Of a DNA stretch of 64,000 nt, positions 10,322 to 63,646 are shown piece after piece. The stretch lies in NCBI GenBank assembly GCA_037903475.1, contig JBAJFG010000562.1, positions 2,604,001 to 2,668,000 on the forward strand, in the 5' to 3' direction. Every line of letters begins with the position of its first letter. Position 1 is the stretch's first letter. A program made the translations under genes and the position numbers. The DNA comes from Ancylostoma caninum. Lineage: Eukaryota > Nematoda > Chromadorea > Rhabditida > Ancylostomatidae. The notes under the pieces were generated by a model. It was given only the letters and a program-made list of their open reading frames with translations. It was not told where the DNA came from and made no database searches.

Positions 10322-12787
10322 ATGCATTTGGTAAGTAAGGAATTGCTGCCTCAGTATTTGTGGGAACAGATAAACTCAAAAAAAGTAGGTTGGAAGAAGA
10401 AGAAATCTACAAAAGAATCAAGGTGGTTCAATTGAATGAAGCAAATAACAACTAATTCTGCTTCTTGTACAAATTTCCTGGCAGAGGATTTAGTCTTCCA
10501 ATCCGAGATTATAGTCTTCCCGCGTTTGGTAAACATTTACTAAATCTCGCTTTGTTGCAGGTCTTGTATTTGGGGATCGCCATACTAACTGTCTCCTGTA
10601 AAGGTTTGCAATATCACACAAGTTTTGTGAACATCTCTCCTTGTAATCATGACCAATTACTCGTTTAGATATGGTACTTTTTGATAGTGGCCAAATCAGG
10701 ATTCCGGAGGACGATGTGAGTTAGAACACGTTAGCTCTTAACAAACTTCCAGTTTATCTCTGGCAGAAATTGTTCGAGCTTCTCTCCAAGTAACTGTTAT
10801 CCCTAAATAAAGCATTATGCTACGTAATAACGGATTTAGCTTGTGGGTGGTCCTAAAATACGGAATTGGAAGGCCGTCTCCGGCCGTTTTACCGGGACAG
10901 TGCTCAGAAAGCCAGCTATTATCTGGTTCAGAATTGGGGGAACAATAAATTTTAGGATCTTTTGGTTTCATCGAGTAGCCTCTCAATTGCACAGAACTCA
11001 ATCAAACGTTCTAGCAGGTTTTAACGGTTCCTGAAGCACAGGCCTGCTAAAAACCCCACAGGAGTTGAGAATCTCCGGAAAGGAACTTAAAAAATAGGAA
11101 ATATTTTTTTTGCCCAACAACCTGCGCACCGAGCCCTTCGACTTCATTTGATGTCGCTGGTCGTCCTCAACAGTTTCCATGAAATTGTTCCTATGCCAGA
11201 ATGATATTCCAGGCGAATTGTGTGATAAGATATGAGATATGAGAGCTACTCAGAAGCCCAAAAACAAATTGTCGACAAGCATTTGGCGAGCAAGTATTTC
11301 ATCGCATCTGAAACTTGCTTTTTCAAAAACTTGTCGACTTGGTTTTGCACTTCCTTGTCGACGGGTGGTCGACCGTATGAACTTGCTCTTGACCCCTTCT
11401 TCACTGACAATCTGTCAGCTCTACACTACAAAATTGCCCAAGGTAGGACCTGTGTGGATGTGGGGGTTTGCACTACCGTCCTTCATTAGGACGCAAACTC
11501 TTTCCCACTCGTTCTCTTCACACCAAGGTGTCGCTGTGTAGGCCTTATGAACTTTCAACGATTGGTCTCACCGTAGTTGCGAAATCGCACGATAGCCATA
11601 CTAGAGCCCCTAGTGGACGTTAGAAAGTGGGTTGGGGCAGCCACTTGGGCTTTGCACAGTCGCACTTGCAAAGTTTTCCGAAAATCAGCGAAAATAGTAA
11701 CTGGGAACAAATGCGAAACTTTTTTCATGAGCTTCGTAGGTAGAGTCATTCTCCGAGGTCATAGCGTTACATCCTTCCATTTGATGTCACCGTATTTCTG
11801 ACTGTGTCACCGTATTTCTGACATGCCTATGGATGAGATACCACTTCAATCCTCAGGTCGGCGCAGTCATTTTATTCAGAGGACAAAAGCTTTGAACAAT
11901 GGAGTGTTACTAACATAGTGTAGATGACTGCTAGGAATGACTCGTGTTGAGATGGTTGTTGGGATGCCCAAACTGACAAGGTGCTGCTTGTGTACCACAA
12001 AGGGAAGAAGGGGTGGTCGATTCAGACAGGAATGATAGGAAAAAAACCAGGATTACGCAAATACTGTGTGTCAGCACTGAGGTAGAGTGCTTGCTATCGT
12101 GCCACGAATGGGTACTTTAATGAACGCCTTAGTGGTTTTCAAGAACGTACCCGACGCGCCATATGTACGCAAAGATATTGCTATATGGTATGGATGCTAT
12201 GTCAATGTGGCCTTTTTGGTGTCCGTGCGCGCCAGCTTACACCAGGCTAGATTACTTCCACATGCTCACCTGACGTACACGTTGTGGAACCCACCAGCAT
12301 TGAGCGGGTGCAATCAAGAGCATCAAGGGAAGACAGCACCTTGCTGTTGCAGAGTTTTTGCGCTATTTCATCATTGGACGTGGGTTCGTCTTTCCTTTTT
12401 TTAAACCTGGGAATGTGGCGGAGCCTCCGCCACAATGATTTCATAGGTGCTGCCTTTAGACTATGACTCAAATTTTAGCAGTCATTTGAGCAAGTTATTC
12501 GGTTAACTAACATAACGTCAAGTTGATGAAGGCGAATTGTCATTTCTGCACAGGTTTTTTTTTTCGTGGTAAAACTTATTAATGCGAGCACCGGAAAAGT
12601 TTGCGTTCTAGTGCTCCAGCGGACTTCTCACAACGTTTTAATTGTACCTTCTGCATTACTGAATTTGGTACCACTCCCTTTTTCTTGTATTATTCTTCTT
12701 TTCTCACTGAAAATGATTCAAGTATGAATTTCAGCCTTGGATTGTGCCCAGCTACAACATCACTATCAAAAAGTACGTCATCGGGAT
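10322..12787 (+). other. Gene A exons 1-4: signal peptide and N-terminal linker
   Basis: Exon 1 gives MHL and ends at gtaagt. Exon 2 (43 nt) gives a hydrophobic run LYLGIAILTVSC. Exon 3 gives FDSGQIRIPEDD before gtgagt. Exon 4 (53 nt) gives SYNITIKKYVIG before gtgagt. Gene B has matching exons of 18, 43, 44 and 53 nt with the same phases (0, 1, 0, 2) and recognisably similar peptides (FDSGQIRMPDD; NYNVTIEKYVIG), which is what makes these short exons believable. YNIT and YNVT supply an N-glycosylation sequon. The function of the linker is unknown. Confidence 0.72.
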
Positions 12788-15700
12788 GTGAGTGATGGAA
12801 AATGTTCCGTTCTTTTTCTTCAGGATTCGTCCTATTTGTTGGCGGGCTCCGCTTTCTAGGCCCTACATGCATCATTCGCCCTTGTCGGGTACCTGTCTGT
12901 GTGGATACCGAACACTTCATATCGGCGTGGAGCAAGTTGTAACAGCTCTCCCTCGAGCCCCTTTTTGGCCGTTTACAGTGCGTCTCGAGATCTGTAGCGA
13001 TTTTAAAGACGATGCCCTTTGAGCACATAGGATATGACCGTGGCATCGTAAGTAGAATTCGTGAAGTTCATCTGTGATCGCGGCAACACCGGAACGGTTT
13101 TTGATGGACTGTCGTTCGAAGCGTGTTATACTAGCCGTTTATCGTTCCGCTCTATAGCGCTGAGATGGCCTTCTATTTCCTTCGCCGCAGACGAACACAG
13201 GCTGGACAGCGCTTCCATAAATCATGGATACTAGTCAGTCTCGAGACCTCTTACACACAAAATACCTTTCGTCGTGTGTTACCTCTCCCACGCAAAGTTA
13301 ACTAGAACTACGTATTACTTATGAGAAAGGTTGATATCGGAAAAGATCGCCGATCAAAGTTCTTGAACGCAACCGCCCTCAGTTTATGTCGTCACGTATG
13401 TGGTGTCGAAATCGTCCACTCTTGTTGTTATTACTCGCTGGTGAAGCTTTAGGTTTGTGTTTGCCGCTCAAATTCTTGTTCGCTGTTCCAGAAGAAGGAC
13501 AAATGTGGGCGTGCCATTTCCACAATGTTAACCGTTGAGTGGATATCGGTCAAATCCATCTTTGCGCAGTGGTCTCCTTCGAGGGACGCTTTGGAGAGTG
13601 ATGGTCTTTAGAAAGACATTTAAAGGTCTCATATCTGACATCGGCCTACAAGTGTTGCAACCTTGGGGATTCCGAACACTGTAGAAATCGAAACGGGTGT
13701 TCCCTCTTTAGTGCTTGATATTTATCCATAACTGCTCAAATGAATGAATGAGTGTTTCGAGTATGGTCATCTGTGACTGTTGCGGTGCAGCCAGAGTGCA
13801 CTTTCGGAACATAGTTGATCATCTATAATGGCTTCAGGGCTGATGCTCACGAAACAGTAACCAAGCAAACCAATTATGGTTAGCGTGACTAGTTATCGTA
13901 CAGACTACGTAGTGCTAGACGATGCAGAAGTGAATATTGGATTGTTGACCAAGTTTTGGCTGGTTCTGCATTCATGAATCCTAGCTCAGAGGGACAGGTC
14001 TTGCAAAGTCAGTCACAAGACGGCACTCTACGAGCAGGGATGAGCGGAATTACGCTTTCGAAAGTTCGGAAAATTCTGAATTATGCGAGCTTCTAGCTTG
14101 TAGGATTGGCGGTAGTTCGATGGTAACATCTCATATGTATTGTTTTTATCTCTCCAAATTGTGCCGAATTGCGAACTTCCTACAAGTTCCGACTTCCGAT
14201 CTTGCGGAATAATTCCGCTCACGTGTGTTTGTGAGGCTCTGTTGGCAGAATATGTTCACAATCATGAGACTTCGCTAACCTCTTAGGTTTGGCTTCTGCC
14301 TTGCAATAGCGAACACGCTGACGCAGTGTCTGTATCGCCAGAACAAGTGTTGATTTTTCTTCGAACAGTCCGCAGGGTAGCATCCGGTCTGGGCTGTGAT
14401 TCATGAAACGATAACCAAGCAAACCAACAATGGCTAGAGTGATTGGTTATCGTATTGACTACGTAGTGCTAAGAGACGCAGACAACAAAAGTTGGTTTGC
14501 TAGCCTGGGTTATCGTTTCATGAATCCCAGCCCTGATAGGTCTAGGTCGACTGTCTGATTGAGTGCTGAACCAGCACCGAACTACTCAATGTTAGCCTTC
14601 TGAGGTAAGGCATTGTTATATATTAGTCCAGTCCCAAGCCAGAGTAGGCAGAATGAATGCAGGCTACACTTCCTCAATTGAATGAAGCTGTCCGTACTTC
14701 CTAGTACGGAGTCCACTAGGAGCGCGAAATTAGCATGTGATGAGAAAATAAGAGTTTTCTCACCACTGCAACTCTGAGGGTGTCGAGTAGGCGCTGTAGT
14801 TTGTTAAAGGCAGCACTCACGGAAATTTTCGACTTGAAAAAGTCAACAAATCTCAAAGCTATCGAAGGTGCCAAACAATCGCATATAGTCGGAACTTTTC
14901 GATAGCACCAAAGACCCTGTTTTTAGAAGCTCACGGTAAGGTTAGGTGTAGCAGGTGTAGTCGAGTTGCATGAGCTATGGGATGGGGATTGACAGCAAAA
15001 GATCGTTAATGCCTTTTTTTCATCGGTTGGATATTTGCGCAATCAGTTATTTGTTCCATAATGCAGGCTTTCCGTACCTCATTAGGAAAAATAACCATTG
15101 GAAATTGTGACGCACTTAGCATACATGTCATTTGAAAATCAAAACCTCGGGAAATCTTCTAATAGGAGGAAATTTGGAGAAAATCGAAATTTCAACATAA
15201 AATAGTTTGAACTTTTGCTAAACAGCTTTAATTTCTGTGAAACACAAATGAGAAAGCAATCCATCTGATAGAAGTAGCAAAAGTACAAAAAATCCTCAAA
15301 ATGACTCACGAGGAGAGAAAAACGACTGGATTTTACCAGAACCGCAGTGAAACAGCTGTTTCTGTTGCAATTTGAGCAACAAACAACTAACGGGAAACTC
15401 GTCCAAATTGACCGGTGGCACAAAGATGTACCAGTTACTGCGATGAACGCAGTCAGTTTTCGTTGCTGTTATTATAAAGAAACCAATCGGAGTGCGCCAA
15501 AGTACCAGAATGTGTGAAAATCTGAGGAGCGAAAGTTTCCGTGGATGCTGCCTTCAAGCTCCCTAGAAGTCCTCCCTTGGAATCTTGTATATTGGGGACT
15601 AGCTGCAAACTACACTCTACACCATCCGAATAGCTATATATTCTTCTGTTCACCCCAGACTTTGATTTTTCAGGGCTTATATTTTGCCGACTAATCAGCC

Positions 15701-17071
15701 TTGTACGACGGACGAATCCTGCTTGATATTTCCTGGGACTCGTTGCTTGCACAAATATTGTACTACTCCTGGATCCCCATGCACAAGCGATAACGATTGT
15801 CCGGCAAAGCACCACTCGTACTGTGTACATTCGCAATGTATCAGTTTTGGACAAAAATGTGCGGAAAACGAACAGTGTCCCTTCTATCCAACAATTAATT
15901 GTTTGAATTCGATTTGCATCAGACCGAAGCACTGCGATACCAACGCCGACTGCATTGGATACGATGGAGCAGAATGTATTGGCTTCAGATGTGTAAAGCC
16001 AACACGTTCATGTAGACGCCATTCGGATTGTTTTTTCAAACCACATACTTACTGTATAGAATATAGATGCAGGTGGTTGTATCAATCTTGCACTGCCGAT
16101 TATGACTGCCCCTACATAGGTTACACACAGTGCTCGAATTCTCGCTGTGTTATCATCACTGAGGCTCCTGCAGAGCCCGGATCTTGCAACTCGAACAAGG
16201 ACTGCCCTAGTCAGAATATCTGTTTGAATTCAAAGTGCGTAAAGAAGGGCGCATGCACGAGTGATGCTGATTGTCGTAATTATCCCGAGCCATACTGTAT
16301 CGGCAACCAATGTCAGCGGCTAGGACAATGTCGTGTTGATTCCGATTGCCCACTGGATCCACTTATCTACTGTCTTGGTTACAAATGCGTTAAGCTTGGA
16401 CAGAGCTGCCGAGCTGACAGCGATTGCTCCTATCCGCAAGTAAGTTGCATTGACTCAAAATGCATCAAGCTAGGCCAACGTTGTCTCAGTGATTCAGAAT
16501 GTCCATACGCACCATGGACCTTTTGCATCAACTCAATGTGTGCAAAAGTGATAACATGCAATAAAGACTCTGATTGTGGACTTTATCACCAGACCTACTG
16601 TATTAATTCACATTGTCGATACCTCGGGCAGTCTTGTGAAACGGATGAAGTATGCCCACATTATCCGTTGACAGCTTGCGTCAACTTACAATGTGTGAAG
16701 ATTCATCAGTCGTGTAAACAACACAGCGATTGCCCTTATTTCCCACATACCTCGTGCATTGGAAACCAGTGTGAGAAACTGGGTGGAAGTTGCAAAAGGG
16801 ATGCTGATTGTCCATTCCCATTTTACACAATCTGCAAAGATTCAACGTGCCAAGCGGTAAGCGCATTCTTTACTTGTGTTCGAATTGTATTGAATTAAAA
16901 AACATTTTTCTAGAAAGGAACTGGAGACATTTTCTTCAACATTACTAATATCAACATTGGAGAGTGAGCTATTTTTATCTTTATCTTAGAATTTTACTTA
17001 TCTTCAGTCGGGTTGTTGCAAAGACAACGCTTTTATTCGACGAATTGAAAGCAGTCAAAATTATATACATA

Positions 17072-17119
<48 letters not shown>

Positions 17120-17214: not shown

Positions 17215-17245
<31 letters not shown>

Positions 17246-20200
17246 CACATATATAAATTGTCGGTGCTGAAGAGAGGAGTTACGTTTTGTCAGGCTTGTG
17301 CGAAAGTAATTTCTGGAAGGGACGTTCCAGTTCAAGACGTTATACCAAGACGATTTCAGCATGCTCCTAATCACCAATATGCTGTTGTGACTTTGCAACT
17401 CAACTAGAGCTCAGGAAAAGCTATTCAGTGAGGTTACGGTCTGGGAACAATGAGAATTAGTGGAAAACTCGATGACTTACTATGTCGGTTTTTGCGGGGA
17501 GGTTTTGGAATGTGAGGTTCAGATTACCCTAGAGCAGCAGAAATTCTGCTCCTCATCATCACTGCCGACCACGTCTGTGATAGATATTCAGATATCAACT
17601 CAAAGGAACAGTGTTAGGAATCTGCTCTCAATGTGTGACTATATTAGAGGAGGCTGCAGTAGATCAAATCACACTCCTACAGCTCCACCGAACTCCTACC
17701 ACCACCACCTTATTTGGTTCAGGAATACCTAGAGGAAAAATCCTTCTACCCATCCACATTCTCGCTACATGTTATCGTAGAGGAACCATCTCTATCTGTA
17801 CTGGCTACCCGGCCTAGAAAAGGAACCTTTTTCAGCAGAAAATTAGGTTAGAGAAAGTGCCATAGCGGGTGCGACGCTGGTCATTGGTCAGATCATGAGA
17901 AATTCACTTCAGCACTTTTCTTGACATGTTTATTGAGGTCAAATATTTTGAAAATGTAGTATAGTAGACATCCATCGCTGCTCTCAACATTTATATGGTA
18001 GGATCAGGTTTAGACTCCCCAGCTGCTCACAACGTTCAATCGTCAAGCTACATCCTGCGACCATGGTTGTGTTCGAGTTTAAAATTGCAGGAGGACAACT
18101 TCGCTATCAAATTGGGCCAAAGAAAAACGTATCTTTGTGCATACCGCGAAACGGCTATTAATTTCGCAACAGCCTGGTAATAGGATTTCAGAAAGAGTAC
18201 TTTTTGTAAATTTTGAAGAAATTGTTCATGAATATTTTGCCCAACGAAATCAAATTTACAAGCAAATTTTCGCGTCCTATGTCTCAGAACAGTCCACGGT
18301 GGATAAGATAAGCAATCACTCTAACCATCTTTGGTTTCCTTATTCAGCATTTCGCGCATCCGAGCGATGAAAAGAAGGACATGAACAGAAAGTATGACAA
18401 CCAAATAACAGGAAGAATCTCCAAGCTCACAAAAACTGAAATCTTCGCAAAAAATGGTTCCCATAATGTCGACGCGTTCTAGACAGAGATTCTTATTATT
18501 TTAAAAAGGTTTTTTCTAATCGCAAACTTTGACCTTCAAACTTTGCAGGGCACACGTTTTACCAATGGGAAAACGCTGCACTTTGGACAACGATTGTTCG
18601 ATATTCCCCAGAACCCAATGCTTTGATGGTTTTTGCGTATCAAAAGGAAAACCATGCCGAACAGATGCAGATTGTCCTCCCTATCCTCAGTCACAGTGCA
18701 TTCGTTCGCTGTGCCTTAAGATGAAAGATAGCTGTATCGACGACAGCGATTGTCCGTTTTATCCTCGCACGAGATGTATAAAATCAGAGTGCGTGAGACT
18801 GCAAGGTCAGTGCAGCACAAATGTGGATTGTCCGCTATCTCCATACACTGAATGTCACAACAATCAATGCATTCCTCGCCCTTGCAGGAGCAACGCCGAC
18901 TGTTTAACCTCTCCACCAATGAAATGTGTCCAAAACTCATGCAGAGAACTGTTCCAATCTTGCCGTGCAGATACCGACTGTCCGCAAAATGGGGATACTT
19001 TCTGCATCAAATCCCGCTGTGTCACACTGTTGCAGTGGTGCGCTAACGATAAGGGATGTCCTTACTATCCTCACACGTTATGCATGAACTCGAAATGCAT
19101 CAAAGCAGCCGTATGCAGTAATGACTATGACTGCCGTCAGTACCCAGGAACATTCTGCATTCAATCACAATGCAGAGAACCTGGACACTGCCGCGCTGAT
19201 TCGGATTGTGGAGCAGACCGCTCATTCAATTGTATCAGAAACAGATGCATAAAAATTGGACAGTCATGTAGAGTTGACGTAGACTGCTTGTACAACCCCG
19301 AGTTAATGTGTTTGGAAAGCAAATGCACGAAACTTGGGCAGGCTTGCACTGTGGACTCAATGTGCCCTAATTATCCACTTACGTATTGCATGCACTCAAA
19401 ATGTATAAAAATCCCGACATGCATAGGAGACGAGGATTGCAGAAATTTCCCACAAACGTCCTGTATCAATACGAAATGCGAAAAACTTGGTCAGAAATGT
19501 CGTGTGGATTCTGATTGTCCATTCAGACCATCTACAGGATGCGTGAACAAACAGTGTGCAAAACTAGGACAGAGCTGTCGGTTTGACACGGATTGCCCGC
19601 TCCATCCGAACACCATGTGCATCGACTCCAAGTGTGTTGGGGCTACATATTCTTGTGGGGCAGACCGTGACTGCCCGTATTATCCGAGAACGGTTTGCGT
19701 GAACGACCGATGCATCAAAGTAGGACAGGCATGTCGACAAGATTCTGAATGTCCACACCATCCTCACACATGGTGTATAGCTTCTCAATGCACCAAACTT
19801 GGGCAGCCATGCACCCAAGACCGGGATTGCCCCACCTATCCCCATACAGCATGTGTTGACTCACGTTGCATCAAGGTTGGCCAGAAGTGTGCAGCCGACA
19901 CTGACTGTAAATACTATCCAAAAATGGTGTGTTTAGATTCAAAATGCGTGAAGCTTAGCCAAAGCTGCTCGAGAGATGAGGATTGTCCTCACAGGCCTCA
20001 TACAATTTGTCTCAGGTCGTGGTGTGTAAGGGTTGGTCAAACTTGCAGCCAAGATCGAGACTGTGCAAACTATCCAGACCTACAATGTATAAACGGTAGA
20101 TGCCATCGGATTGCGGGGAAATGCAGAAGGGATTCCGACTGCCCACATCATCCCTATACAGGTTGCGTGCGGTCTGAATGCATGAAAGTAGGACAGCACT

Positions 20201-23200
20201 GCAGAAGTGATGAAGACTGTCCATCTTATCCATACATGGAATGTACGAACAACAAATGCGCAGCGGTACCTGGATCTTGTCGAACTGATCTCGATTGCTC
20301 GCAGCATCCTCCCAGAGAATGCATTCGCTCTTTGTGTGTGAAGCGTCGAACGTGTCGAGCCAACGACGACTGTCCCTTCTCTCCCGAAAATCGTTGTCTG
20401 AATACGCACTGTAACAAACCAGGCAAATATTGCAGAAAAGATCGAGAGTGCAAAAGTAAGGGGAATCGATTCTGTGTCAACCACCTATGCATTAGGCTTG
20501 ATCTTCCATGCACCTCCGATAGCGACTGCCCATACTATCCGAAAACGCTGTGTAAACGCACCCGCTGCGTCAAAAAACCGCGGACGGAGACAACAAAAAG
20601 TCCACCTACTCGCTCAACTCGACGGACTACCAGGCATACAACACAAAGACCACGTCCCACTACTACAACTACCACGACAACCACAACTACCAGAACGACT
20701 CCTAGGGTTGAGGATTTTACATCCAAATATAGTGAGTTTACTCAAGTTTCGTTGCCTTTCATGCTCGTTACCTTATTTCTTGTCTTCCTTTACCATTTAA
20801 ATCATTGATATGTATTTGCTTTCGCACTAGATCCATCTTCCACTCGAATCCCACCAGTCCTTGCCTTCGTTGTTTTATGTAAAACCTAAGATGTCCTTTG
20901 GATCCTGAACTGTCTCAGAACCTACTCTTATGCAAAGTCAATCGCCAGGTGTGGATCAGTAAGATCTAGCAAGCAGTAAAGAGCAGTAACTCATATTATT
21001 TAACAAGTTTCATAGTCGACCTGGAGGCTTTCTCTACGATTCGTTGATGAAATATGGTACTTCGAGGGAAAGTGCGAGTACTTCCTCCGAATGCATCCTG
21101 CGCTTGATTTTGGTTGAGAAACATTAACAACAATTTATTGAGAAGCAAATGAAGAGACCTACACAATTCGGCATGCTTTTTATTTGGCATCACCTTTTGC
21201 AAGGCTTGCAGTGTGTCCGTGGATTGTCGCGGTCACGTTAATTAAATTTGCTGCACTTTGCCGAAGCAATTGCACTTGTTGCAACTACTTGCATTTCTTG
21301 CAATGCAATGCATTACGATTGGTGTCACTGCATATTTCTCAGTGCGTTGTATAAAATGCAATGCATTAAATTGAAAGCATTGACAAAAAAGCATCGCATT
21401 GACAAGAATGCAATGCATTAAATTCGGTTCAATTACCCAAGTTTTATCGCTATTTTTATCTCCCAATTTTCGGTAACGTAATGTAGCTGTTTCAAGGCGC
21501 TTTCTTTCCTCTACAAATGTTTTTTCATGCGATTCCTCAGAAATATTCACTTACTTAATTTTTCAGACTTAAGAAGAAAAACGTCAAGTCAAGAAAAACA
21601 CCATTACTTCTTGAAAGAATTTTCTTCGGTCCCATTGAACTTGAAAGAACGCTGGCCATCACTTATTTTAAGCAAAATATCTCTTTTATACTTAGCATTG
21701 GTCGCTTGGTTTGTTTTGCTGGCCCTTCGAGCTTCAACTAAATGTCAAAACGGATAGGTATCGCTTGTGCTGTTTTTCATTGACTCTGTTCTCCTGAAAA
21801 CTGATTGCAAAATTATTTCAGAGCCTGAACAGATCTTTTCAATTCTACATGACAGATACCCAAAGGATAACAAATTGAACAGAAAATTGCAGCTGGAAAA
21901 AAGCGCAACTTATGCTAACACCGAATGTGTAGAGTGATTGTCAATACAATCGCGCTTCTCGCATGCTCATGAAGCATGCGGCGCGACCGCGTCGCTCGCA
22001 CTTGAATTCGCGCAGCCACAAAAAACTATAGGGTTTTCTTGACAGTTACTAACTTTCACTGATATTCAACATCAAATATGATGGAAAACTACTAAAAAAC
22101 CCTGACCCGCCACTGCGGCATCGCCTCCAGCGCGAATAGTCCTTAAAAACTCCATTTTCAGGACTCTGCCCTCCATCGTATGATCACCTGTCACGGGAAC
22201 CAGTTAGACGAAAATTCCTGGACCTACATAACCGATATAGGTATGAGGCTCATAAGCTTCATCACTCCAAATTACCAGGGTTTGATCTTCTAAAACAAAT
22301 AATATCTTCAATTCACTGAAATTTTCAGATCCCAGGTGGCTCTAGGTAATGTAAGGATGGGAAGTGGGGTATTAACCCGGAAAGCTACACATATGAAGAG
22401 ACTGGTTGGTTGACTGAGTGCTCTTTGATGTATCGCAATCCATCTTGCCTTCTCATTTGCATATACACTTTCAAATTTTCAATTAGGTCTTTTTTTAACT
22501 AGACCTACTCGTGCAAAACGGAAGAGTCGGCACATCGATCGGCTTCTCGCTGCTCTGACTCAGATAGCAAATATCCAGATGTTCTTGAAATTCGGAAGAT
22601 AATCCATAACCCGAGCATCGACCCCGTAGACGCAGCTAAACAGGTTTGTGAACCCTCTTATAGAGGTGGAAGATGGGGAATTTTTGTCTCTGACCTGAGG
22701 GCCTTATTTCACTTTGATCTTTTTGGGCATCTTCGCATGAGTAGAATAGTCATGCGCCAATGTTCACAATGGCATAGATAATTCTGTATAGGAGCCGCAA
22801 AAGCACTTCTCGAACTTGAGCTGAGCAGAGTTGTTATGCAGCGCATCTACAGCTAAAGGGCGGGAGGATTGGTGAAGAAAGCTCGTTGTACTTCCGCGTT
22901 GGCTCCGCCCACTTTCTCTCGACGGGCTTGGTTTGAAATAGTTTTAGCTGTTATTCTGTGTGGAATCATGCATATCTCTCACAGGGGCTGCTGAAGATTC
23001 CAATTTAGTATCAACACCAGGACCAAAACAGCTTGATAAGGCGGAACAGTTAGAGCTGCACAATTTTGGCATGCTCTACAGGGTGCGTCATAATTATTGA
23101 CGCACTGAAGTTGTGCTGTAAAAAGAACAGCATCCTGAAAAACCACTATATATGCATATCCAAAATGAGGGTCATGTCCTGGCGAACACAAAAAATCCAC

Positions 23201-26089
23201 TCCTGTTAGGAGAGCGCTCTCTCCTTGTAAAAGCAGCCATGAAGATAGCAGCAGAGAATATCGCCGATGCGCCGCAACTGAAGTTCGTCCATTATTCCTC
23301 CATATTATAAAGTGGGTAAGCTATAGGAAAACGATACTCCTATGTGAAAAGGGGCAGGTCTTACTCTCCAAGTATCACATGAAAGCATATCCTTGTTCGC
23401 AAGTCTTGTCGTGTTCCCGCCAAAGAAAGGCATCTATGTTTTACTATAGAAAAATTTTTCCTTTCCTTGTTTCTCATTCAAGCAACCTTCTAAGGGCACA
23501 TTTTCTCGCTCATCTCAGTTCTCATCACAAGGTGAATTCATAGGTACTTTGGCAGGACTTGGCTGCTGTGCAAGAGACAAAAGTGGTACGGGCCCAGTTT
23601 CAGAAATTTACTTGAGGGACTTCAATTTAGCAGAGAATAGGCTTCCTTGTGAACCGAGTTCCAGTCCACGGATGACCCCATACGGAAATCTTAGAGAGCA
23701 AGAGCTGCGCTATCATCCACAGAAACATCAAGCTCCCAAATGCTTATATATTCAAGATATAGGACAAAGTAGACCTGAGTTAGTTGCGGCGCAGAGGCTG
23801 TGCGATCCCTCGTCGTCTCTGTGAGTGCTTCAGCAAGGAAAGAGCTTGCTGTGAACAAGAGTGTATTTATTCGGATCGCCAAGACATGGGCTTTATTCTG
23901 CATATGCTTATTTGGAATGTTTTTGCATATTGTCTTTTCTACAGATTCATTTTAGATACGTCAATAATTCTGACGCACCCTGTATATCAGTAGTCTGCTA
24001 ATGTCGCAGGTTTGCATCTCGAACTCGTGAAAAGAGATATTCAGTGAGGGAAAGGTCTGAGGAATGAGAATTCTGATAACCCTGCAGCACGAACGCAGCC
24101 CGAACGGCGTAATGGTTCAGCAATCGCTACGAAACAGACGAATGCTTGAGCAACAATCGAGGGAAGGATAGCAGCAACTGGCCTCGAACCATTACGCCGT
24201 TTAGGCTGCGGTCGTGCTGCACAGTTATCAGAGGAGGATGAATGAGAATCTCAATGCCTTACTGCGCCAGTTCTTGTCGGGTGAATTTTTGAGTGAGAGG
24301 CTTAGCGCTACCGTGGAGCAGGGGAAGTCCTGATTCTGTTCGCCACTGCCAACGAATTTTTGTAGCAGAGTTTCGGACATCAAATCGAAATTACAATACT
24401 AGGACTCTGCTGTTAACGCTTGACTGGGTGGCAAGAGGCTGTAGCGGATCACTTCCTTAGAGCACCACTAAATTCCTGACACTACCTCCCTAAGGAGAAG
24501 ATCTGGTTTAGGAAAACATTGAAGTGGGAAACCGCTTCCGCCAATATCCATTCGCATTTCTTGTTATCGTACAGAAACCGAGCTTCATCTGCTTCATCTA
24601 CAGTAATTATATGGCTAGAAATGAGCCGTTCTGGGACGGAAAATTAAGTTAGAAAAGATGTCACACCAGGTGAAACGCTAGTCATCAATCAGATCGTGTG
24701 GTGTTCACATCCGCACCTTTCCTACGCTGTTGATTGAAGGCAGATATTATGAAACTGTAGTATAGTGCGCGTTCATTCGTGATCTCACGTCCGGATGGTA
24801 AGATCCGGTTTATGGGTTCTATGGCTGCCCTCAACGCCTGATGGTCTAGTGACATCCCGCGAGAACGACCATAGCTGTATTTGAGTTTGAAGTAGTAAGA
24901 AGAAAACTTCGCGAACTCCCAACTCACTGTCCATTAGGAAGGCAATTCCAAGCCGAAACAAATGCAGGATTACAGGACACCTCTTGTTCAGAGTGATCAA
25001 GTTTGAAGTCATCAATACCCGAAAATCACGTTGGCTCATCATTTGTTCGCGTCTCTAACTGGAAAGAGTTAGCCCGGATATCCAAGCGGCTTTTGAAAGA
25101 GGAGGAAAAGCCCTTTCAGAGGGTCACACAAGTTGGATTGAATTTGCTTAACTCCCACAGAAAAATTTATTTGTGCATACTCCAAAACGACAATTAATTT
25201 CGCACTAACCTGATATTAGCGACACTTCCACAGTAACACCCCTCAGCTCAGAAACGACAGTTCCATTAGATATTGCATTCGAGCGTTGGAAATCTGTCAG
25301 ATTTTAATACTCAGATGTTGCCACTAATTAATGAAGAGTTTGATTTGGGTAGAATGGCTTGATCACAGTGAGCGACGATCGAGCTGACCATTTTGCGGGC
25401 CGGTATCGAACAGCAACGCGGACGCACCGCGCACTGCGACCATACATATTTAGCCACGACAGCTCATCCGTGGCTCATCTAATTTTTTTGTGATATTCGA
25501 AGTTCTGCGATAGAAAAGCGACAAACAATAGGTATAGCTGGCAAGTATGATGATGCAAGTGCCCGATTCTCGAGTCCGTAAAACGTTTGGCTCCATCGTC
25601 GTTCACTTTGGAGTTATAAATTAAAAAGCCAAGTGAGCAATTAATCCGTGTAAGCTGTAGGCCTCTGAAAGCTGGTTCAATGAGATCAAGACTGGTCACA
25701 TGTTTCAACGAACCGGGTCACAGAATTTGTATCTGCCGAAATTCAATATTCCAAACTTTGGAAAGGTATGCAAACGTGTCCTTTTTTTTCAAATTTTAGC
25801 CACGTTTTATTGTTGATTATGCGATATTCTTCAGATGATGTGGGATAGTAACTCATACATTGGATGTGCCGTTGTTCGGTGTTCATCATTTACCAATGTG
25901 GTCTGTCACTATGGACCTAAGTAAGCGTACACTATATTGACTACAAATATGTACGGCCGAGTTTCAGTTTTGTTAAAGCGATAAAATTTCAGGACTCGAA
26001 GTATTGGTAGGTGGGGAAACACAATCTACCATATGGGTCCCACGTGCAACCGCTGTAAAAACTCGTGTGTGGAAGGACTTTGTAGTTAG
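10322..26089 (+). CDS. Gene A: secreted multi-EB-like-module/mucin/CAP (ASP-type) fusion protein, 1383 aa
   Basis: Hand-built model with 13 coding exons: 10322-10330, 10561-10603, 10669-10715, 12735-12787, 15674-16856, 16914-16963, 18549-20731, 22162-22240, 22329-22404, 22503-22643, 25661-25765, 25835-25920, 25993-26089. All introns are GT-AG, phases match at each junction, and the total is 4152 nt with one terminal stop. Order: signal peptide MHLVLYLGIAILTVSCKD (ATG placed before a gtaagt donor), acidic/N-x-T linker to residue 50, 15 four-Cys modules (about 58-445), linker 446-462, 26 modules (about 467-1155), Thr-rich stretch (about 1155-1185), CAP domain (1190-1383). Secretion is inferred from the signal peptide. 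CAP/ASP proteins are a known expanded secreted family of hookworms; the EB-like label rests on cysteine spacing only. The fusion rests on phase-compatible splice sites and is shared with genes B and C. Weakest points are the tiny first exon and the 2.9-kb intron 4. Confidence 0.8.
13835..13987. repeat. Small inverted-repeat MITE, copy 1 (gene A intron 4)
   Basis: Begins CAGGGCTGATGCTCACGAAAC, contains GTTATCGTACAGACTACGTA, and ends in a partly complementary ATTCATGAATCCTAGC. Related to the copy at 14389-14535. Confidence 0.5.
14389..14535. mobile_element. Small inverted-repeat MITE, copy 2 (gene A intron 4)
   Basis: Arms CTGATTCATGAAACGATAACC-like sequence and its complement, ending CAGCCCTG. 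Shares AACCAAGCAAACCAA and GACTACGTAGTGCTA with copy 1. Confidence 0.6.
15674..16856 (+). other. Gene A exon 5: first array of 15 four-cysteine modules
   Basis: A single 1183-nt exon starts after tttttcag and ends at GCG|gtaagc. It encodes 15 consecutive modules of the form C-x5-C-x7-C-x4-C with a six- to eight-residue spacer, usually with Asp before the second Cys and Tyr/Phe-Pro in the first loop (for example CPYIGYTQC). The spacing resembles EB modules of nematode extracellular proteins. The exon starts in phase 2 (G|GCT) and ends in phase 0. Gene B has the same exon at exactly the same length. Confidence 0.9.
16914..16963 (+). other. Gene A exon 6: short N-x-T linker exon between the two cysteine arrays
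   Basis: A 50-nt exon after tttctag encodes KGTGDIFFNITNINIG plus GA, then gtgagct. Without splicing it would end at an in-frame TGA two bases past the donor. With splicing, GA joins the G that opens exon 7 to give Glu-Ala-His. It resembles exon 4 in length, phases (0 to 2), an N-x-T sequon and a final I-G. Gene B has an identical copy at 33731-33780. Confidence 0.75.
17073..17139 (+). repeat. ATT trinucleotide microsatellite (gene A intron 6)
   Basis: About 22 units of TAT/ATT with one interruption. The gene B counterpart near 34043-34070 is much shorter. Confidence 0.95.
17142..17295. repeat. Foldback repeat with TA-rich loop, gene A intron 6
   Basis: The arms read CTCTCTTCAGCACCGACAAT and its complement around a TA dinucleotide tract. 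The arms continue into a shared AACTCC...GTTACGTTTT sequence. The same structure occurs at 34072-34515 in gene B. Confidence 0.8.
17330..18200 (+). repeat. Non-coding module shared by intron 6 of A, intron 6 of B and intron 10 of A
   Basis: This sequence recurs almost unchanged at about 37085-37990 in gene B intron 6 and, much more diverged, at about 24030-25210 in gene A intron 10 (shared landmarks: TGAGAAT, GTAGTATAGT, TTTGTGCATAC, TTAATTTCGCA). No intact reading frame is conserved. It is probably an old repeat or duplicated intronic DNA. Confidence 0.7.
18549..20731 (+). other. Gene A exon 7: second array of 26 modules plus Thr-rich tail
   Basis: A 2183-nt exon starts after ctttgcag and ends at A|gtgagttt, phase 1. 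It holds 26 four-Cys modules of 27-28 residues, then a basic Thr-rich run including an uninterrupted stretch of about 11 Thr, typical of an O-glycosylated hinge. Read without splicing, the frame continues into a hydrophobic tail ending at 20808. The strong donor and the phase-compatible CAP exon at 22162 favour splicing. Confidence 0.88.
21250..21430. repeat. ATGCAATGCATT-rich repeat cluster (gene A intron 7)
   Basis: Several copies of TGCAATGCATT, some followed by AAATT, occur within 180 bp in both orientations and form local inverted repeats. Confidence 0.6.
21620..21760 (-). repeat. Second copy of the relic seen at 7061-7306 (gene A intron 7)
   Basis: Similar minus-strand peptide and shared nucleotides such as TTTAAGCAAAAT. 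Interrupted frames. Confidence 0.4.
23079..23992. mobile_element. 914-bp TIR element with TA target duplication (gene A intron 10)
   Basis: Ends CAGGGTGCGTCATAATTATT and its near complement are flanked by TA (23077-23078, 23993-23994), suggesting a Tc1/mariner-type element. The interior shares stretches with 300-840 near the window start. No intact transposase was seen. Confidence 0.75.
24030..25210 (+). repeat. Old diverged copy of the intron-6 module inside gene A intron 10
   Basis: It aligns by eye with 17400-18180 over most of its length, with many substitutions and a 157-bp inserted inverted repeat at 24074-24230. Confidence 0.6.
24074..24230. mobile_element. Short palindromic MITE
   Basis: The ends GATAACCCTGCAGCACGA and TCGTGCTGCACAGTTATC form inverted repeats of roughly 45 bp with mismatches. 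No coding capacity. It lies within the 24030-25210 repeat. Confidence 0.7.
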
Positions 26090-34111: not shown

Positions 34112-34161
<50 letters not shown>

Positions 34162-40400: not shown

Positions 40401-41085
40401 TTCAACTCGCCCACCTACCAGTCAACGTAGTTCTAGGAGCCGTCGTACGACGACTACTAGTACTACTACCACCACTACCACTACCACTACCACTACCACT
40501 ACCACTACCACTACGAGAAACCGTCCAACTCCTCCACCATGGCGCCCGCGTCCCACCTGGTCACGAACGACTCGACATACAACTCCGCGCCGAACCACTT
40601 CCCGTCCAACTCCGCCACGGACGACTTCCCGTTCTACTACACCACGAATGACACCTCGCCCGAGTACGCCACGAACAACTCCCCGTCCAAGTCCACGTGC
40701 GTTCTGTCTCAATTTTGGCAAGGGATCTTCGGCTAATGTCCAATTTTTAACCAGAGTTTACTTCCAGCGAGCAGCATATATAACTGCGCAAATAATCCAG
40801 AAATGAATGACGCCGCAAGGAAACTGGTGGTCCAAAGACATAATAAGCATAGGTGCTTTCCGACTAGCAAGATATTTTCACCGAATTTTGCTGTGATAAA
40901 TAATTGTTTCTTGAATTTGCACCTCTTAGGAGCGATTTAGCGCATGGAAGAATTAAAAATGGGAGGCAACCAAGGAATTTTGCGACTGGTGGAAACATCA
41001 AGGAGATGGTAGCGGAATTTTTTCATTTCTTTTGTTACAAAACTGTTTAGGGATAAGATCTAATTCACAATAACGGGCTTACCCC

Positions 41086-41173
<88 letters not shown>

Positions 41174-42316
41174 TGTGTGTGTGTGTGTGTGTGAGAAACG
41201 AAATTCAGTGAGCGTGGCTTATAGTGAAGAAAATGACCTACACCGGGTCCATTGTCGCGGAAAGGGTGCGCCGGCGCCCGAAAGTAGGGAAATGCCTGGA
41301 GATGGGTCGAGCGGTGTGATGAGGCTGCGCCTGAGTCCTAAAATTTGGAAACGACTGGAGACCGGGGGTGCGCAAAAGCTCACAAGTAGGAGAAATTCGT
41401 AGGAAGTGTCCGTTCTTGCATGACCTGTGCACTGGCATTTCGGCCATTTCCCCTTGCTACATCAGCTAGGTGCGCAATATCTCTTTCCGTGCTCGCATTC
41501 TTTCTCCATTCCATTTCTGTCTGGAAGAACCATTCTCTCCCTTCCGTTTGTATACACCGGTGGGCCCTTATCACTCGAATTACAATTACAACCATTCAAA
41601 CATAAACCATTCCGAGATCATTTGCTTTCAATCGATTGCACTGAATTATTCACTACACTAGGGCCAAAAGACATTACTTCGCCGATATGGAAGAAAACTT
41701 CGCTGATAAGAGCGAGAGCTCTGAATTGGAGCGATGGATCTGCGTGAGAGGATAGAGATACTGTGGAAGGTTTACTAAACGCGGAACAAAATTCAATATG
41801 GTGTATGCGAGAGAAGTGAGCATTAGTAGAAGTCCGGTTAGACTGGTATCATTATATTCTCGTTGGCGTCTTCTGCTGTTCGTATAATTTGCGTTGCATA
41901 GTCGCTGTGACCGTGATTTCGCAATGTTTGAGAATTAGCTACGAATTGGTCCACCTTGGCTTAGTAAAATTCACCAATTACTGCATAGTCACGATTATTC
42001 ATATTTAGAAGTATGACTGCGGTCTGGAAATGCAAGCATACAATACTGCAAAGTCGTGTCCGAAGTCAAGAATTGATCAAATCAAAAAGCATTCGATGGA
42101 TGAAAATGCTTGGAGTATTAATCAGCCAAGTGCATCCCCTGAAGACGCCGTGGAAAAAGTTAGTAGGCTCATATGTATTGTAAAGTAATTTCAAAAATTT
42201 ATATATATATATTATATATACTATATATTAAGTTTATCGGGAAATGACTGAGACACTTCACCAAAAATTCTTTCTTGCAACCCTCCCGCGTGACCTATAC
42301 CTATATTTATATTTAT

Positions 42317-42347
<31 letters not shown>

Positions 42348-59421: not shown

Positions 59422-60887
59422 GACAAGCCACTCAAGTGTAAAAGCAATCTGGAATGCGCTACTGGGCTGAAGAAACTATGCATCAATGGCTTCTGCACGG
59501 AATCTTCCTCCAATCCATGTAGTAATGATGCAGACTGCCCTTGGTCCTCCCAGAGATGTTTGCAAAATCGGTGCATGGAATCTAATAAGTCCTGTACAAC
59601 AGATTCTGATTGTCCTTTCGGCGACTATCAGCCTTGTTCCGAAACAAAAAAGAGTCAATGGTGAGAACGCTTGCGATATTTGTAAACAAAAACCATAACT
59701 ATTTACATGGATTTAATAGCTATCAGAGTACAAGAGTGGACGTCATCCACTCTTAGAAATTACTTCTGGGATCAGTCTGGATCAACCCTAGCCACTGGCA
59801 TCATCACATCTTCTTTTCAGGGAATACGCGGACTGTCAACGACACAGATCAATTTTCTGCATCAAATCACGTTGCACTAAGATTGACCAAATATGCCAAA
59901 TTGACTCTGAATGCCGCTTCTATCCAGAAGTGCAGTGCATTAATTCTCAGTGTGCGAAAATTGGACAACCATGTGCGAAGGATCAAGACTGTCCTTTCTA
60001 TCTGTTTACAAGTTGTGTTGATTCCAAGTGTGTCAAGCTCGCGACGTGCTCAGAGGACACCGACTGTTCTGGCAACCCGCAATATTCTTGTATTGACTCT
60101 CTGTGCGTGAAACTGGGCCAATCCTGCAGCGAGGCTAAGGATTGCCCATATTACTGGGCAACTGAATGTGTGAATTCCAAATGTGTGAAACTCAGACAAC
60201 CCTGTGATGCTGATGCAGAATGTCCGTATTATCCTCACACTGCTTGTATTGATTCAAGATGTGAGAAGATCGGGCAAACTTGTCAATACGATATGGATTG
60301 TCCATTTTATCCGCAAACACCATGTCTTGCTGGAAAATGCGCCAAGAAAGGCGGAAGCTGTCGTAGAGATAGTGAATGTCCCAATTACCCCCTCACTGGC
60401 TGTGTTATTTCACAGTGTACAAAACTTGGAGAAGTATGTTGGTGGGATGAGGACTGTTCTCTTTTTCCTTACATGGAATGTTCAAATTCAACATGTAAAA
60501 AAGTCCCTACATGTGTTACCGATAACGATTGTGGCAATGATGTACCTCGCGAGTGCATCAATTCGCTTTGTCTGAAACGCCGACTTTGCAGGAATAACGC
60601 TGACTGCCCATTCTTCCCCAAGAATGTCTGTTCTAACACACACTGCGTAAAGCCTGGTGAATCTTGCACTTCTGATGATCAATGCTTGAAAGAGGGAAGG
60701 AGAAGATGTGTGATATCCACATGTATACGCCTGGACCTCCCTTGCACCTTCGACCAGGATTGTCCATTTTATCCATTCACCTATTGCCATGAAAATGAAT
60801 GCGTGAAAACGGAACTCAATGCGACGATACTACAAAATCCAATATTAAGAGGGAAAAAGTCTTGGAACAGAGAAAATCACCGAAAAG
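59422..60887 (+). other. Gene C cysteine-module exons
   Basis: Exon 59422-59660 carries CKSNLECATGLKKLC and two further modules and ends TG|gtgaga. Exon 59821-60887 continues with one module lacking its first Cys and 12 complete modules. The Trp made at the junction (TG|G) sits where the third module should close with Cys, so two half-modules meet there. Sequence is clearly related to the C-terminal array of genes A and B but far more diverged than A is from B. Confidence 0.8.
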
Positions 60888-63646
60888 GTACTCTTGTTCA
60901 TTCTCCGTCTCAAGTAGGAAAAGAACTAATGTGTCGTACTTTGACTTAAGTATTAGCGCAGCTATTTTCCCACCCCTTTGCCATTCTCTGGTGAACAATT
61001 TTGTACCATTCGGAAGCGCTTCCTCTCTACATGATCTTCCACCAAAATTTCAGTTGAAAAACTCTTTGTTGAGCATTAATCGAAAACAAGAAAAAGGAGA
61101 CTCTGGCACTGCAGTCTCATGAACTCGATATTCCATTTTGTTGGCTTGTAAAACTGAAGTAAATTGATGCTTTTGATATAGCTTATCACACGACGGTGTG
61201 CTTGTAGGATATAGATAATGGTATGACAAAAGCGAGCTGTGTTGCAAAAAATTTGTCATGATGAGAACAAAAACATGATGAAGTCTCTTTTTACTCCCAT
61301 CTGCTGCTGATCGATCAATATCAGAAACGCCTTGAGATAAACAGCGTAACAGGTCTTGTTGTAGTTCTGTTCTTTCGGCAAACTGTTCAAAATTACTTTA
61401 ATGAAACCGCCATGAAAGCTCATGATCAAAGTACCAAATGAACTCTTTAAGTACTTTTACGCGTTCAAGCGTTTCATGTAAAGACCAAATATCAGGAATT
61501 GGTGAGTATTATAATATTTTTCAGACAGTGTGTGAATGGTTCCATGATCCATCCTAACACCTATTCCAGCGTGCTTCCAAACCACTCTTAACGATGAACT
61601 GCGTGACCTACTGGTAAAAATTCATAATGATGGTCGACGAAAAACGGCGAGGAGGATGCATTTCGCTGCCGATCGAGGGAAGAATAAAACAGCAAAAGCC
61701 TTGTACGAGCTGGTATGCTGAAAGTGTTTATAATTGCTGTTTATAATTGTTGCTTTATTTTCTTCATCCTTTTCCCCAAGAGGCGCACCAATTATTAGGT
61801 TGTTGTAATATCGATGTCGGATTTTCCAACACCGAACTACGGAATAATACTTCGGAATGAGAAATGATGTTTCACTCGAATATTTGACACTTATTTTAGA
61901 GCTTATTTCTTCCTCTTTCCGCTCTTCCATTTCAATGATGACCTATTGACGTTTAGTGGCCTTCGCGTGGGTGAATCGAAGTGTAGTCGTTAGCAAGAAT
62001 TCGTCTCAAACTTGACCATGGATTTAAACTCGGTAAAAACGCAACAGCTAGGAAGGGGAATATAACCAACCTATGCGGGAAGGAATGTCGAATGAAATCA
62101 GAGCTCAATTTTGGTCCAACTAACCTAGTTTTGGAGAAAAATGTCTCAAAGTTGAGCACTAAAATTCAATGAAGTCAACGTCGTTCTCGAAGCACTGGTG
62201 GAAGTTCTAACCAGAGGATGTGTTCAGTATCTCGAAGGTGGCTATAGGGTTTATTGTTTTTCTACCTTTGGCGCCATGGATGGGATAGGCACGGTGAAAA
62301 AATTGGGCAAGTGAATTCTCCTCGAATTAACATCTGGGGTTTTGCAACAGCACAAGACCTCACTTCGCACTCCAGACATTCTGGAAGAAGACACAAGGAG
62401 TAATCCAGACTCGCCTTTGAATAGCTCACTCAGCGGACTTTTCCACTACAGATAACCACAAATTCAGGTGGTTAGGCTCATCCCTGAGAAGAATAGGCTG
62501 CGAATATAGCTCTGCTCAAAACGCCTTCGCAGATTTTGTTGACTCCAAAAAGCTTGGCTCCAAATCCAACGGAACCAAAACTTGGCTGAAAATAGGGGAA
62601 GATGTACTGATTCAAATGACGGCTCAATCGGGGCAAAAACTTCAGTTTTGGCCGAGTTACGACAACTCATGGTTAACTGTCAAAATTCGACATCGATTTC
62701 GCAACATGTGTATGTGCCGTTCAATCTCTTCCTTTCATCATATAATACTGAAATGCAGCCTGCCGCGCCGCATCATCCGCGCGACGCGGCCGACAAGCTG
62801 AGCGTTGTGGTTGTTGCGTGTTGCTTACGTTGACGTTCTGCGTGTGTCTGTTGGAGCGCTGACTCAAGATCTGAAATGTGTATTCAAGTATTTCCGAATG
62901 TAAACAAAGACACAGAAAAGCGATGGGAAACATAAGCAGACACGAATACCGACAACGTCCTTACCTCCTCACGTAGATGGTGTGTCGCGGCAGATCGGAT
63001 TGGCGGCATCCTATGATGTGACCAGAACTGTTGCATGGGGTGCCATGGTGCAATGCGCTTCTTCCGTTCTTTTTTTAGAAATACAACTGCAAGTTAGACA
63101 TGGCCTCTATAGTGTCGATAAGCGATTGTCTGAACATTTCATCAATCAAACCCGGCGTGAACGTTTTCCAGTAAGTGCTCTTGCTTTTTTGCTGTTAGGG
63201 TGAGGTTTGGATGGTGTCGTATCTTTCATCAGCTTGTACCATTGAAGAGTAATCATGCCAAGTCCAATAACAACAGTGGAGCAAGTGGTCAGATCTGCGG
63301 TGAAGTCGTGGTGTTGGAACTGCTTAAGCAGAGCAAATAAAACTACCGATGCGATGAGTCATGCGAACGTGAGACACTAGTCCCCTTTTATATCTTTTTG
63401 AATGTCTCTAAGCAGCTTGACCATTCTTTACAAGTGGTTATTTCTGCTTAAAGTCAAGTCCCCATTAATTTTTTTTCGTGTTCAATGAATTTATTTTAGA
63501 TTGTCTATCACAAAACACTTTCGCTTGGATGCGCATATCGGTTTTGCAGTGGGACAACCCCTACGAAACACGTTCTTCTATGTCACTACAGCGATAAGTG
63601 ATCTTTTCGTCTCAGAATTAACTGCCTTTCTACGAAAATGCAATGA
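59422..63646 (+). CDS. Gene C (5' incomplete): shorter EB-like-module/CAP fusion protein
   Basis: Exons seen: 59422-59660, 59821-60887, 61570-61712, 63079-63170, 63248-63368, 63500-63597, 63616-63646. These are phase-compatible and give about 596 residues to the stop. The first two exons hold about 15 four-Cys modules that end like genes A and B (CIRLDLPCTFDQDCPFYPF). A short basic non-Thr-rich tail follows, and AAA G|gtactc splices in phase 1 to the CAP exon, exactly as in A and B. The CAP part has NDELRDLLVKIHND, KYNCKLDMA, VEQVVRSAVKSW, LSLGCAYRFC and LLCHYSD, but lacks the usual Cys-rich C-terminus in the spliced frame. The acceptor at 63248 (gaag) is weak; gccaag at 63264 is an alternative. 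No signal peptide is firmly identified; the exon at 59422 needs a phase-0 partner upstream. Confidence 0.7.
61570..63646 (+). other. Gene C CAP-domain exons, shortened C-terminus
   Basis: Unlike genes A and B, the first two CAP segments are fused in one exon (61570-61712, no intron after the HN motif). Later exon boundaries correspond. After LLCHYSD the spliced frame ends within nine codons, at TGA 63644-63646. A different frame of the same last exon would read KCNDCKMQ and stop at 63662, which looks more like the normal C-x-x-C ending. A small frame disruption near the C-terminus is therefore possible. Confidence 0.65.

What the first reader, a model, noticed from the sequence alone, without database searches (positions are those of the whole stretch)
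10322..63646. A cluster of three genes fusing long four-cysteine arrays to a CAP/ASP domain
Phase-compatible splice sites link EB-like arrays to exons with unmistakable ASP motifs in all three genes, each time through a phase-1 donor at the end of the array tail. The result is a secreted protein of about 1400 aa with 41 modules (about 164 module cysteines), a mucin-like hinge and a terminal CAP domain. Single- and double-CAP ASPs are well known in hookworms. I do not recall a described protein with this architecture.
Basis: partly seen in the sequence, partly recalled or inferred. Interest (0 to 1): 0.93.

Follow-up and report, generated by a model that had tools for sequence, protein, structure and literature searches.

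The report
Hookworm ASP genes with cysteine-bead stalks
In a hookworm-like worm genome, a cluster of genes appears to encode extracellular proteins in which a long string of small cysteine-rich beads is spliced onto one domain of the well-known hookworm ASP (CAP) family; similar gene models exist unnamed in public databases, and I found no paper describing the combination.

Summary
The fusion is probably real. Genes A and B each carry a six-exon CAP domain with consistent phases and no stops. In B only a 71-base intron separates array from CAP, leaving no room for a separate signal peptide. Public gene models show array plus CAP in Ancylostoma caninum (ANCCAN_01594) and, with a weaker CAP, in Heligmosomoides polygyrus. 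In this genome 6 of 9 array loci (tiny C50 groups left out) have CAP exons downstream on the same strand, one on another contig. Arrays A and B are under purifying selection (dN/dS about 0.15; all 164 cysteines unchanged).

Corrections: 41 modules needs two array exons joined, but their direct join is out of frame; a 50-base exon could bridge them, unproven. The minimum is 26 modules plus hinge plus CAP. Gene C has about 15 modules, no threonine hinge and no found last CAP exon. No convincing signal-peptide exon was found. Extra: A and B share 96-98% identical arrays but CAPs only 31% identical. New variant of a known kind; function inferred only.

The parts
15674..16856 (+). Gene A array exon 1: 15 four-cysteine modules; phase-2 acceptor, phase-0 donor
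   Evidence: Pfam EB 3.8e-14 and DUF7107 3.1e-8
16914..16963 (+). Gene A candidate 50-nt bridging exon (phase 0 in, phase 2 out) after a 57-nt intron; an in-frame stop follows if its donor is not used
   Evidence: identical in gene B; unproven
18549..20731 (+). Gene A array exon 2: 26 modules, Thr-rich hinge, phase-1 donor
   Evidence: Pfam EB 6.9e-9
22162..26086 (+). Gene A CAP exons: 22162-22240, 22329-22404, 22503-22643, 25661-25765, 25835-25920, 25993-26086 (stop codon at 26087)
32490..33672 (+). Gene B array exon 1: 15 modules (not scanned against Pfam)
33731..33780 (+). Gene B candidate bridging exon, identical to gene A's
   Evidence: unproven
38337..40696 (+). Gene B array exon 2: 26 modules, Thr/Pro-rich hinge, phase-1 donor
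   Evidence: Pfam EB 1.3e-6
40697..40767 (+). Gene B 71-nt intron between array/hinge and CAP exon 1
40768..46272 (+). Gene B CAP exons: 40768-40852, 40930-41008, 42009-42158, 43562-43669, 45993-46078, 46179-46272 (stop codon at 46273)
59422..59660 (+). Gene C first array exon in the window (two complete modules by cysteine pattern, a further one cut by an intron; ends approximate)
   Evidence: module profile scores it only 11.9, at background level
59821..60887 (+). Gene C second array exon: 12 complete modules, short tail without Thr tract, phase-1 donor
   Evidence: Pfam EB 6.9e-8
61570..61712 (+). Gene C CAP exon 1 (exons 1 and 2 of the others in one)
   Evidence: (3nt8, E 5.5e-4)
63500..63597 (+). 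Gene C CAP exon 5, matched only by the first CAP of a double-CAP ASP (P0003, E 0.003)
   Evidence: exons 3 and 4 only tentative

Best explanation
The window holds part of a cluster of hookworm genes that encode an extracellular protein: a long string of about 26-residue four-cysteine EB-like modules (at least 26, perhaps 41, in genes A and B; about 15 in gene C), in A and B a threonine-rich, probably O-glycosylated hinge, and one CAP (ASP) domain at the C-terminus. Shown: modules, hinges, CAP exons, compatible splice sites, purifying selection on the arrays, recurrence at other loci and in other species' gene models. Inferred: that these splices are used, that the protein is secreted, and its mode of action. 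Most likely mode: the array is a stiff, protease-resistant disulphide-bead stalk that, with the hinge, holds or displays the CAP domain away from the worm surface or in the secretion, while the CAP domain does the binding (lipid or host protein, as in other helminth ASPs). By phase, the array-plus-hinge exon sits where an ordinary ASP gene should have its signal-peptide exon (phase-1 acceptor of the first CAP exon), which suggests assembly by exon shuffling at a phase-1 intron.
For: Exact phase-1 junctions in three genes; 71-nt intron in B; phase-consistent CAP exon chains in A and B, 12 exons, no stops; A. caninum P0001 with EB, DUF7107 and CAP over cut-off, whose locus lies in this genome with the same phase-1 junction; H. 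polygyrus P0015; 6 of 9 array loci followed by CAP, one on another contig; no signal-peptide-like exon in the gaps of 4 of 6 such loci; dN/dS 0.147 and 0.143 with 0 of 32 amino-acid changes at cysteine; five-module block predicted at pLDDT 88 as regular repeated hairpins; phase-1 acceptor also on the first CAP exon of a double-CAP gene.
Against: No transcript seen. The window's CAP pieces tested one by one give no Pfam match (0 of 4), and 2 of 3 first-exon pieces no PDB match; none of the window's CAP exons is among the 29 genome-wide Pfam CAP matches (150 of 359 candidates scored). 3 of 9 array loci (D, E, 2580k) show no CAP, nor does the 10 kb held around the small C50 groups. H. polygyrus P0014 is an array model without CAP, and P0015's CAP is below Pfam's cut-off, 18.6 against 21.1 bits. 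No convincing signal-peptide exon. Weak start-exon candidates exist in the gaps of the P0001 and 2599k loci. Public gene models are predictions and could share an automatic merging error. Function is untested.
Confidence: 0.78

Rival explanations
1. Array exons 1 and 2 are alternatives, not in series: one upstream signal-peptide exon is spliced either to exon 1 (15 modules, ending at the stop in the small exon, no CAP) or to exon 2 (26 modules, hinge, CAP). The fusion is then real but 26 modules long.
For: Exon 1 ends in phase 0 and exon 2 starts in phase 2, as exon 1 itself does, so both accept the same upstream exon and cannot be joined directly. The small exon 16914-16963 runs into TGA if its donor is skipped. 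Locus C4 has its 27 modules in one open frame and H. polygyrus P0014 its array in one model. The bridging exon was not recovered in D or E.
Against: The bridging exon fits exactly in phase and is identical in A and B. No signal-peptide-like start lies between the two array exons of A, and in B only a low-complexity one without a donor; but an alternative splice needs none there.
Confidence: 0.4
2. Array genes and ASP genes are separate neighbours, duplicated together; array transcripts end in the hinge and each ASP has its own first exon.
For: Three of nine array loci lack a detectable CAP. The first CAP exon of a double-CAP gene also has a phase-1 acceptor, so phase alone does not decide. Read-through of the hinge in gene A ends in a hydrophobic tail at 20808.
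Against: 71-nt gap in B; no start exon seen in the gaps of A, B, C, C4; gene models in two species join array and CAP; gene A's hydrophobic tail is not shared by B, the P0001 locus or C4.
Confidence: 0.12
3. The loci are decaying relics: genes that no longer make protein.
For: Gene C lacks a found last CAP exon and a Thr hinge; the 77-module locus has its array in two frames.
Against: A and B arrays and their 12 CAP exons are open; dN/dS of the arrays about 0.15. The frame change at the 77-module locus may be an assembly error in near-identical repeats.
Confidence: 0.06

Closest known systems
Ancylostoma caninum ANCCAN_01594 (P0001; 'hypothetical protein', UniRef 'SCP domain-containing protein')
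   Same: EB modules, DUF7107, threonine-rich hinge and C-terminal CAP in one predicted protein; its locus is about 35 kb from the window on the same contig, 98% identical over 329 residues and 100% over the matches of CAP exons 1, 4, 5 and 6
   Different: The model is 520 aa and starts inside the array; the locus holds 77 modules by pattern, in two frames. Not named or described as a fusion
Heligmosomoides polygyrus P0015 and P0014
   Same: Arrays of the same modules with a similar start; P0015 continues into a CAP
   Different: Asn-rich rather than Thr-rich tails; P0015's CAP is below Pfam's cut-off; P0014 has no CAP
Double-CAP ASPs (PDB 3nt8, Na-ASP-1; A. ceylanicum Y032_0010g1028, P0003)
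   Same: CAP of P0001 matches the second CAP of 3nt8 best (chain residues 234-424); P0003 has a Thr-rich hinge before its second CAP
   Different: N-terminal partner is a CAP, not an array; in this genome's copy the hinge and the start of the second CAP are one open stretch with no intron between
Single-CAP ASPs (ASP-2, platelet inhibitor among the PDB hits; NIF recalled)
   Same: CAP domain
   Different: No array, no hinge (recalled)
Anisakis EB-module transcripts (PMC5763927, passages read)
   Same: Runs of three to five EB modules in nematode proteins
   Different: Often associated with Kunitz domains, CAP treated as a separate family; far fewer modules

Membership tests
CAP/ASP (SCP/TAPS) superfamily | CAP domain recognised by Pfam PF00188 | tested here: inconclusive
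   Met for P0001 (59.1 bits, cut-off 21.1); the four CAP pieces of the window tested one by one give no match. Exons were not joined, so the whole domain was not scored
CAP/ASP (SCP/TAPS) superfamily | ASP exon order with consistent phases and cysteines | tested here: met
   Genes A and B: six exons each, same phases, ten cysteines each in the full codons; gene C only partly
CAP/ASP (SCP/TAPS) superfamily | Secretion signal | tested here: inconclusive
   Scans upstream of nine array loci gave only scattered candidates, judged by eye; long first introns cannot be excluded
EB module family (PF01683) | Profile match above the curated cut-off | tested here: met
   4 of 4 array ORFs scanned, of six in the window
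EB module family (PF01683) | Whole EB profile covered by one module | tested here: inconclusive
   The best stretches cover only about positions 12-40 of 52; I call the unit EB-like
Double-CAP ASP | Two CAP domains joined by a hinge | tested here: not met
   One CAP exon 1 per locus in the stretches scanned downstream of six arrays; an array in place of the first CAP
Double-CAP ASP | Hinge and second CAP start on one exon (seen in one double-CAP gene) | tested here: not met
   Introns of 1430, 71 and 682 nt there in A, B and C; none in the double-CAP gene

The most novel reading that the evidence does not exclude
Stalk and head evolve separately. A and B have nearly identical arrays (96 and 98% amino-acid identity) but CAP domains only 31% identical, and the 95% identical DNA block stops inside the threonine-codon tract of the hinge. 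So one stalk has been copied, or converted, onto different CAP heads, with the repetitive hinge codons and the phase-1 intron as the exchange point: a combinatorial system for presenting ASP heads on bead-string stalks of 14 to 77 modules.
Probability: 0.35. Interest if true: 0.72.

Novelty: new variant of a known kind. Interest (0 to 1): 0.55.

Why it matters
CAP/ASP proteins are prominent among the secreted proteins of hookworms, and little is known of how they act (PMC11745416, passages read). A recurrent class in which a CAP is mounted on a giant disulphide-bead stalk would give a testable idea of how some of them are displayed or anchored. It also shows why exon-wise annotation misses them: the CAP is split over six small exons that Pfam does not recognise singly, and the arrays run to several hundred residues or more.

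Tried and rejected
Array derived from the cysteine tail of the first CAP of double-CAP ASPs: considered because the tails look alike by eye; a profile of 203 modules does not list P0003, P0004, P0005 or the tail exon in L049 among its best 70 hits, while a single-module exon at C620:2669636 scores 19.5 against 12.0 for the best non-array segment. Not supported.

P0005 (Trichostrongylus) first looked like a one-module relative; it aligns with the CAP1 tail of P0003 and reads as a truncated double-CAP model.

Membrane or GPI anchor from gene A's read-through tail: not shared by B, the P0001 locus or C4. Rejected as chance.

Bridging exon in D and E: my notebook (entry 3) said it recurs there; closer checking did not hold up (no matching 50-nt exon in D; in E it would need a 23-nt intron, shorter than my script allowed). 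Corrected.

Array against solved structures by sequence: 0 matches at E up to 1.

Signal-peptide exon: the scans gave scattered candidates, none that I saw shared by paralogues.

First-exon motif: background is not everywhere low. A place in C620:1936001-1956000 scores 17.8 and one downstream of E 15.4, against 23.2-34.5 leave-one-out at the six loci.

Literature searches. The one paper holding both Pfam numbers is the Anisakis paper, which treats them as separate families.
Full report
What the sequence shows. The window is C620:2604001-2668000 of a 348-Mb genome in 638 contigs. It is very close to Ancylostoma caninum: the public protein ANCCAN_01594 (P0001) matches the genome at 98% over 329 residues of array and hinge and at 100% over the matches of its first, fourth, fifth and sixth CAP exons; the species name itself is inference. 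A scan for C-x5-C-x5..10-C-x4-C finds 96 modules in the window, all on the + strand: 15+26 in gene A, 15+26 in gene B, 2+12 in gene C. Pfam EB is above its cut-off in 4 of 4 array ORFs scanned (of six in the window), but with only the middle of the profile covered by the best stretch. Gene C's first array exon rests on the cysteine pattern alone: a module profile scores it 11.9, at background level.

Junctions. Donors at 20731, 40696 and 60887 are phase 1, and so are the acceptors at 22162, 40768 and 61570. The introns are 1430, 71 and 682 nt. A phase-1 GT can be pointed to in the tails of 9 of 9 array loci (A, B, C, D, E, 2563k, 2580k, 2599k, C4), though these were picked by eye and a long tail holds GTs in all phases; in D and E a stop codon follows at once. 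In the 6 loci with CAP, a phase-1 acceptor is available before CAP exon 1 in 6 of 6: it is the only AG in the open stretch in C and the P0001 locus, one of two in A, two of three in 2599k, four of six in C4, and two of the six nearest shown in B.

The CAP exons. Single pieces are too short and divergent for Pfam (0 of 4), and of three first-exon pieces compared with the PDB only gene C's matched (Ancylostoma secreted protein 1, 3nt8, E 5.5e-4). tblastn with eight CAP queries finds exon 5 or exons 5 and 6 of A, B and C (best E 1.4e-6, 5.2e-7 and 0.003, the target being the 198-kb cluster). Guided by P0001's exons, the chain e1 (phase 1 to 2), e2 (2 to 0), e3 (0 to 0), e4 (0 to 0), e5 (0 to 2), e6 (2 to stop) is complete in A and B, 12 exons without stops, ten cysteines each. 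In gene C, e1 and e2 are one exon, e5 is clear, e3 and e4 are tentative, e6 was not found. A first-exon motif scored leave-one-out gives 23.2-34.5 at the six loci; the next best place in those stretches reaches at most 13.5 and their antisense strands at most 11.9. Elsewhere the background is higher: 17.8 in C620:1936001-1956000. For D, E and 2580k the best scores are 12.1, 15.4 and 10.4 (that profile included rows from A, B, C, 2599k and P0001, but not C4, which scored 31.4).

Is it one transcript? No RNA data are at hand. For one transcript: gene B leaves 71 nt, with one ATG, for anything else; no hydrophobic start exon with a phase-1 donor was found in the gaps of A, B, C or C4, while the P0001 and 2599k gaps show a few weak ones (the detector was not calibrated on known signal peptides); the NCBI model P0001 joins array, hinge and CAP at just this junction; P0015 of Heligmosomoides polygyrus also runs from array to CAP, with a CAP score of 18.6 bits, below the cut-off of 21.1. 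Against: the models are predictions, P0014 of H. polygyrus has an array and no CAP, and the first CAP exon of a double-CAP gene at C620:838 kb also has a phase-1 acceptor. By comparison with P0003 the exon before it should carry the signal peptide; I did not locate that exon. So phase alone would also fit a separate gene.

How long is the array? Array exon 1 of A ends in phase 0 (after 16856) and exon 2 begins in phase 2 (18549); B is the same. A direct join is out of frame. A 50-nt exon at 16914-16963, after a 57-nt intron, has phases 0 and 2 and is identical in B at 33731-33780. It is one of 87 possible bridging exons by simple rules and not the best scored, was not recovered in D and E, and runs into TGA if its donor is unused. 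Exons 1 and 2 both start with a phase-2 acceptor and a similar first module, so they could equally be alternatives behind one signal-peptide exon. 41 modules is therefore a maximum; 26 plus CAP is the minimum. My scans found no convincing signal-peptide exon for any of the nine loci.

Selection. Between A and B, dN/dS is 0.147 for exon 1 and 0.143 for exon 2; 0 of 32 amino-acid changes touch a cysteine, 60+104 cysteines in each gene.

Cluster. In the 198 kb taken as they lie (C620:2540001-2738000) there are further arrays: 77 modules (P0001 locus, two frames), 10, 14, and the pairs 15+17 (D) and 14+17 (E); C4 has 27, and C50 groups of 3 and 2. The genome search that led to them was a capped one, so more may exist. 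Six loci have CAP exons downstream on the same strand: A, B, C, P0001, 2599k and C4. Three do not in the stretches scanned: D (5.7 kb), 2580k (10.6 kb) and E (31.7 kb, 20 kb). The small C50 groups were left out of this count; the 10 kb held there gave no CAP match. The C620 loci are tandem copies and not independent; C4 is on another contig.

Stalk and head. The A/B duplicate (about 95% at DNA level, with insertions in B) begins 7 nt before the first array exon and ends at 20700/40488, inside the threonine codons of the hinge. Array proteins are identical at 367 of 384 and 649 of 664 residues; the CAP exons at 56 of 178. Either the array was copied to a new head, or gene conversion homogenises the arrays only.

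Structure and function. A five-module block is predicted with mean pLDDT 88 as a repeated short turn plus hairpin; no significant PDB relative was found. Helminth CAP proteins bind sterols and fatty acids (PMC6193718, passages read) and abound in hookworm secretions (PMC11745416, passages read). I infer a stiff stalk that presents a CAP head; this is not tested. Confidence in the stalk reading alone is about 0.4.

Literature. Papers seen: PMC5763927, PMC6193718, PMC7694928, PMC11745416 and PMC7179942 as passages; the rest as search listings only. No paper in the held library holds 'EB domain', 'CAP domain' and 'nematode' together; one holds both Pfam numbers and treats the families as separate in Anisakis; none names ANCCAN_01594. 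None of the 15 of 17 papers listed holds both 'EB module' and 'SCP domain'. Most subscription papers are not covered.

Noticed in passing
C620:2563117-2569564 (L031), minus strand: P0001 locus: 77 modules in two reading frames (open frames of 1405 and 835 aa) with a three-module higher-order repeat; the frame change may be real or an assembly fault.
   Followed up: partly
C620:2691439-2706785 (L038, L039): Array pairs D (15+17) and E (14+17) without a detectable CAP; E's second exon ends in a different proline- and cysteine-rich tail.
   Followed up: partly
C620:2669636-2669803 (1.6 kb past the window): Lone open stretch with one EB-like module (profile score 19.5), perhaps the last exon of gene C or the start of another array gene.
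   Followed up: partly
C620:1944719-1948651 (L044, L045): CAP exons 61-91% identical to P0001's with no group of two or more modules in the 20 kb held.
   Followed up: partly
C620:842350-842900 (L049): Double-CAP ASP gene: tail of the first CAP, Thr-rich hinge and start of the second CAP lie in one open stretch.
   Followed up: yes
P0002 and P0016: Bacterial-looking proteins from ENA/JGI sources with runs of similar four-cysteine modules (P0016 matches DUF7107).
   Followed up: no
window 3516-3793, 6750-7028, 43163-43436: A repeated element of about 280 bases in both orientations, 69-84% identical, likely a mobile element.
   Followed up: no
window 17452-18104 and 24234-24912: The intron before array exon 2 of gene A shares a 65% identical stretch with the large CAP intron of gene A, probably a repeat.
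   Followed up: no
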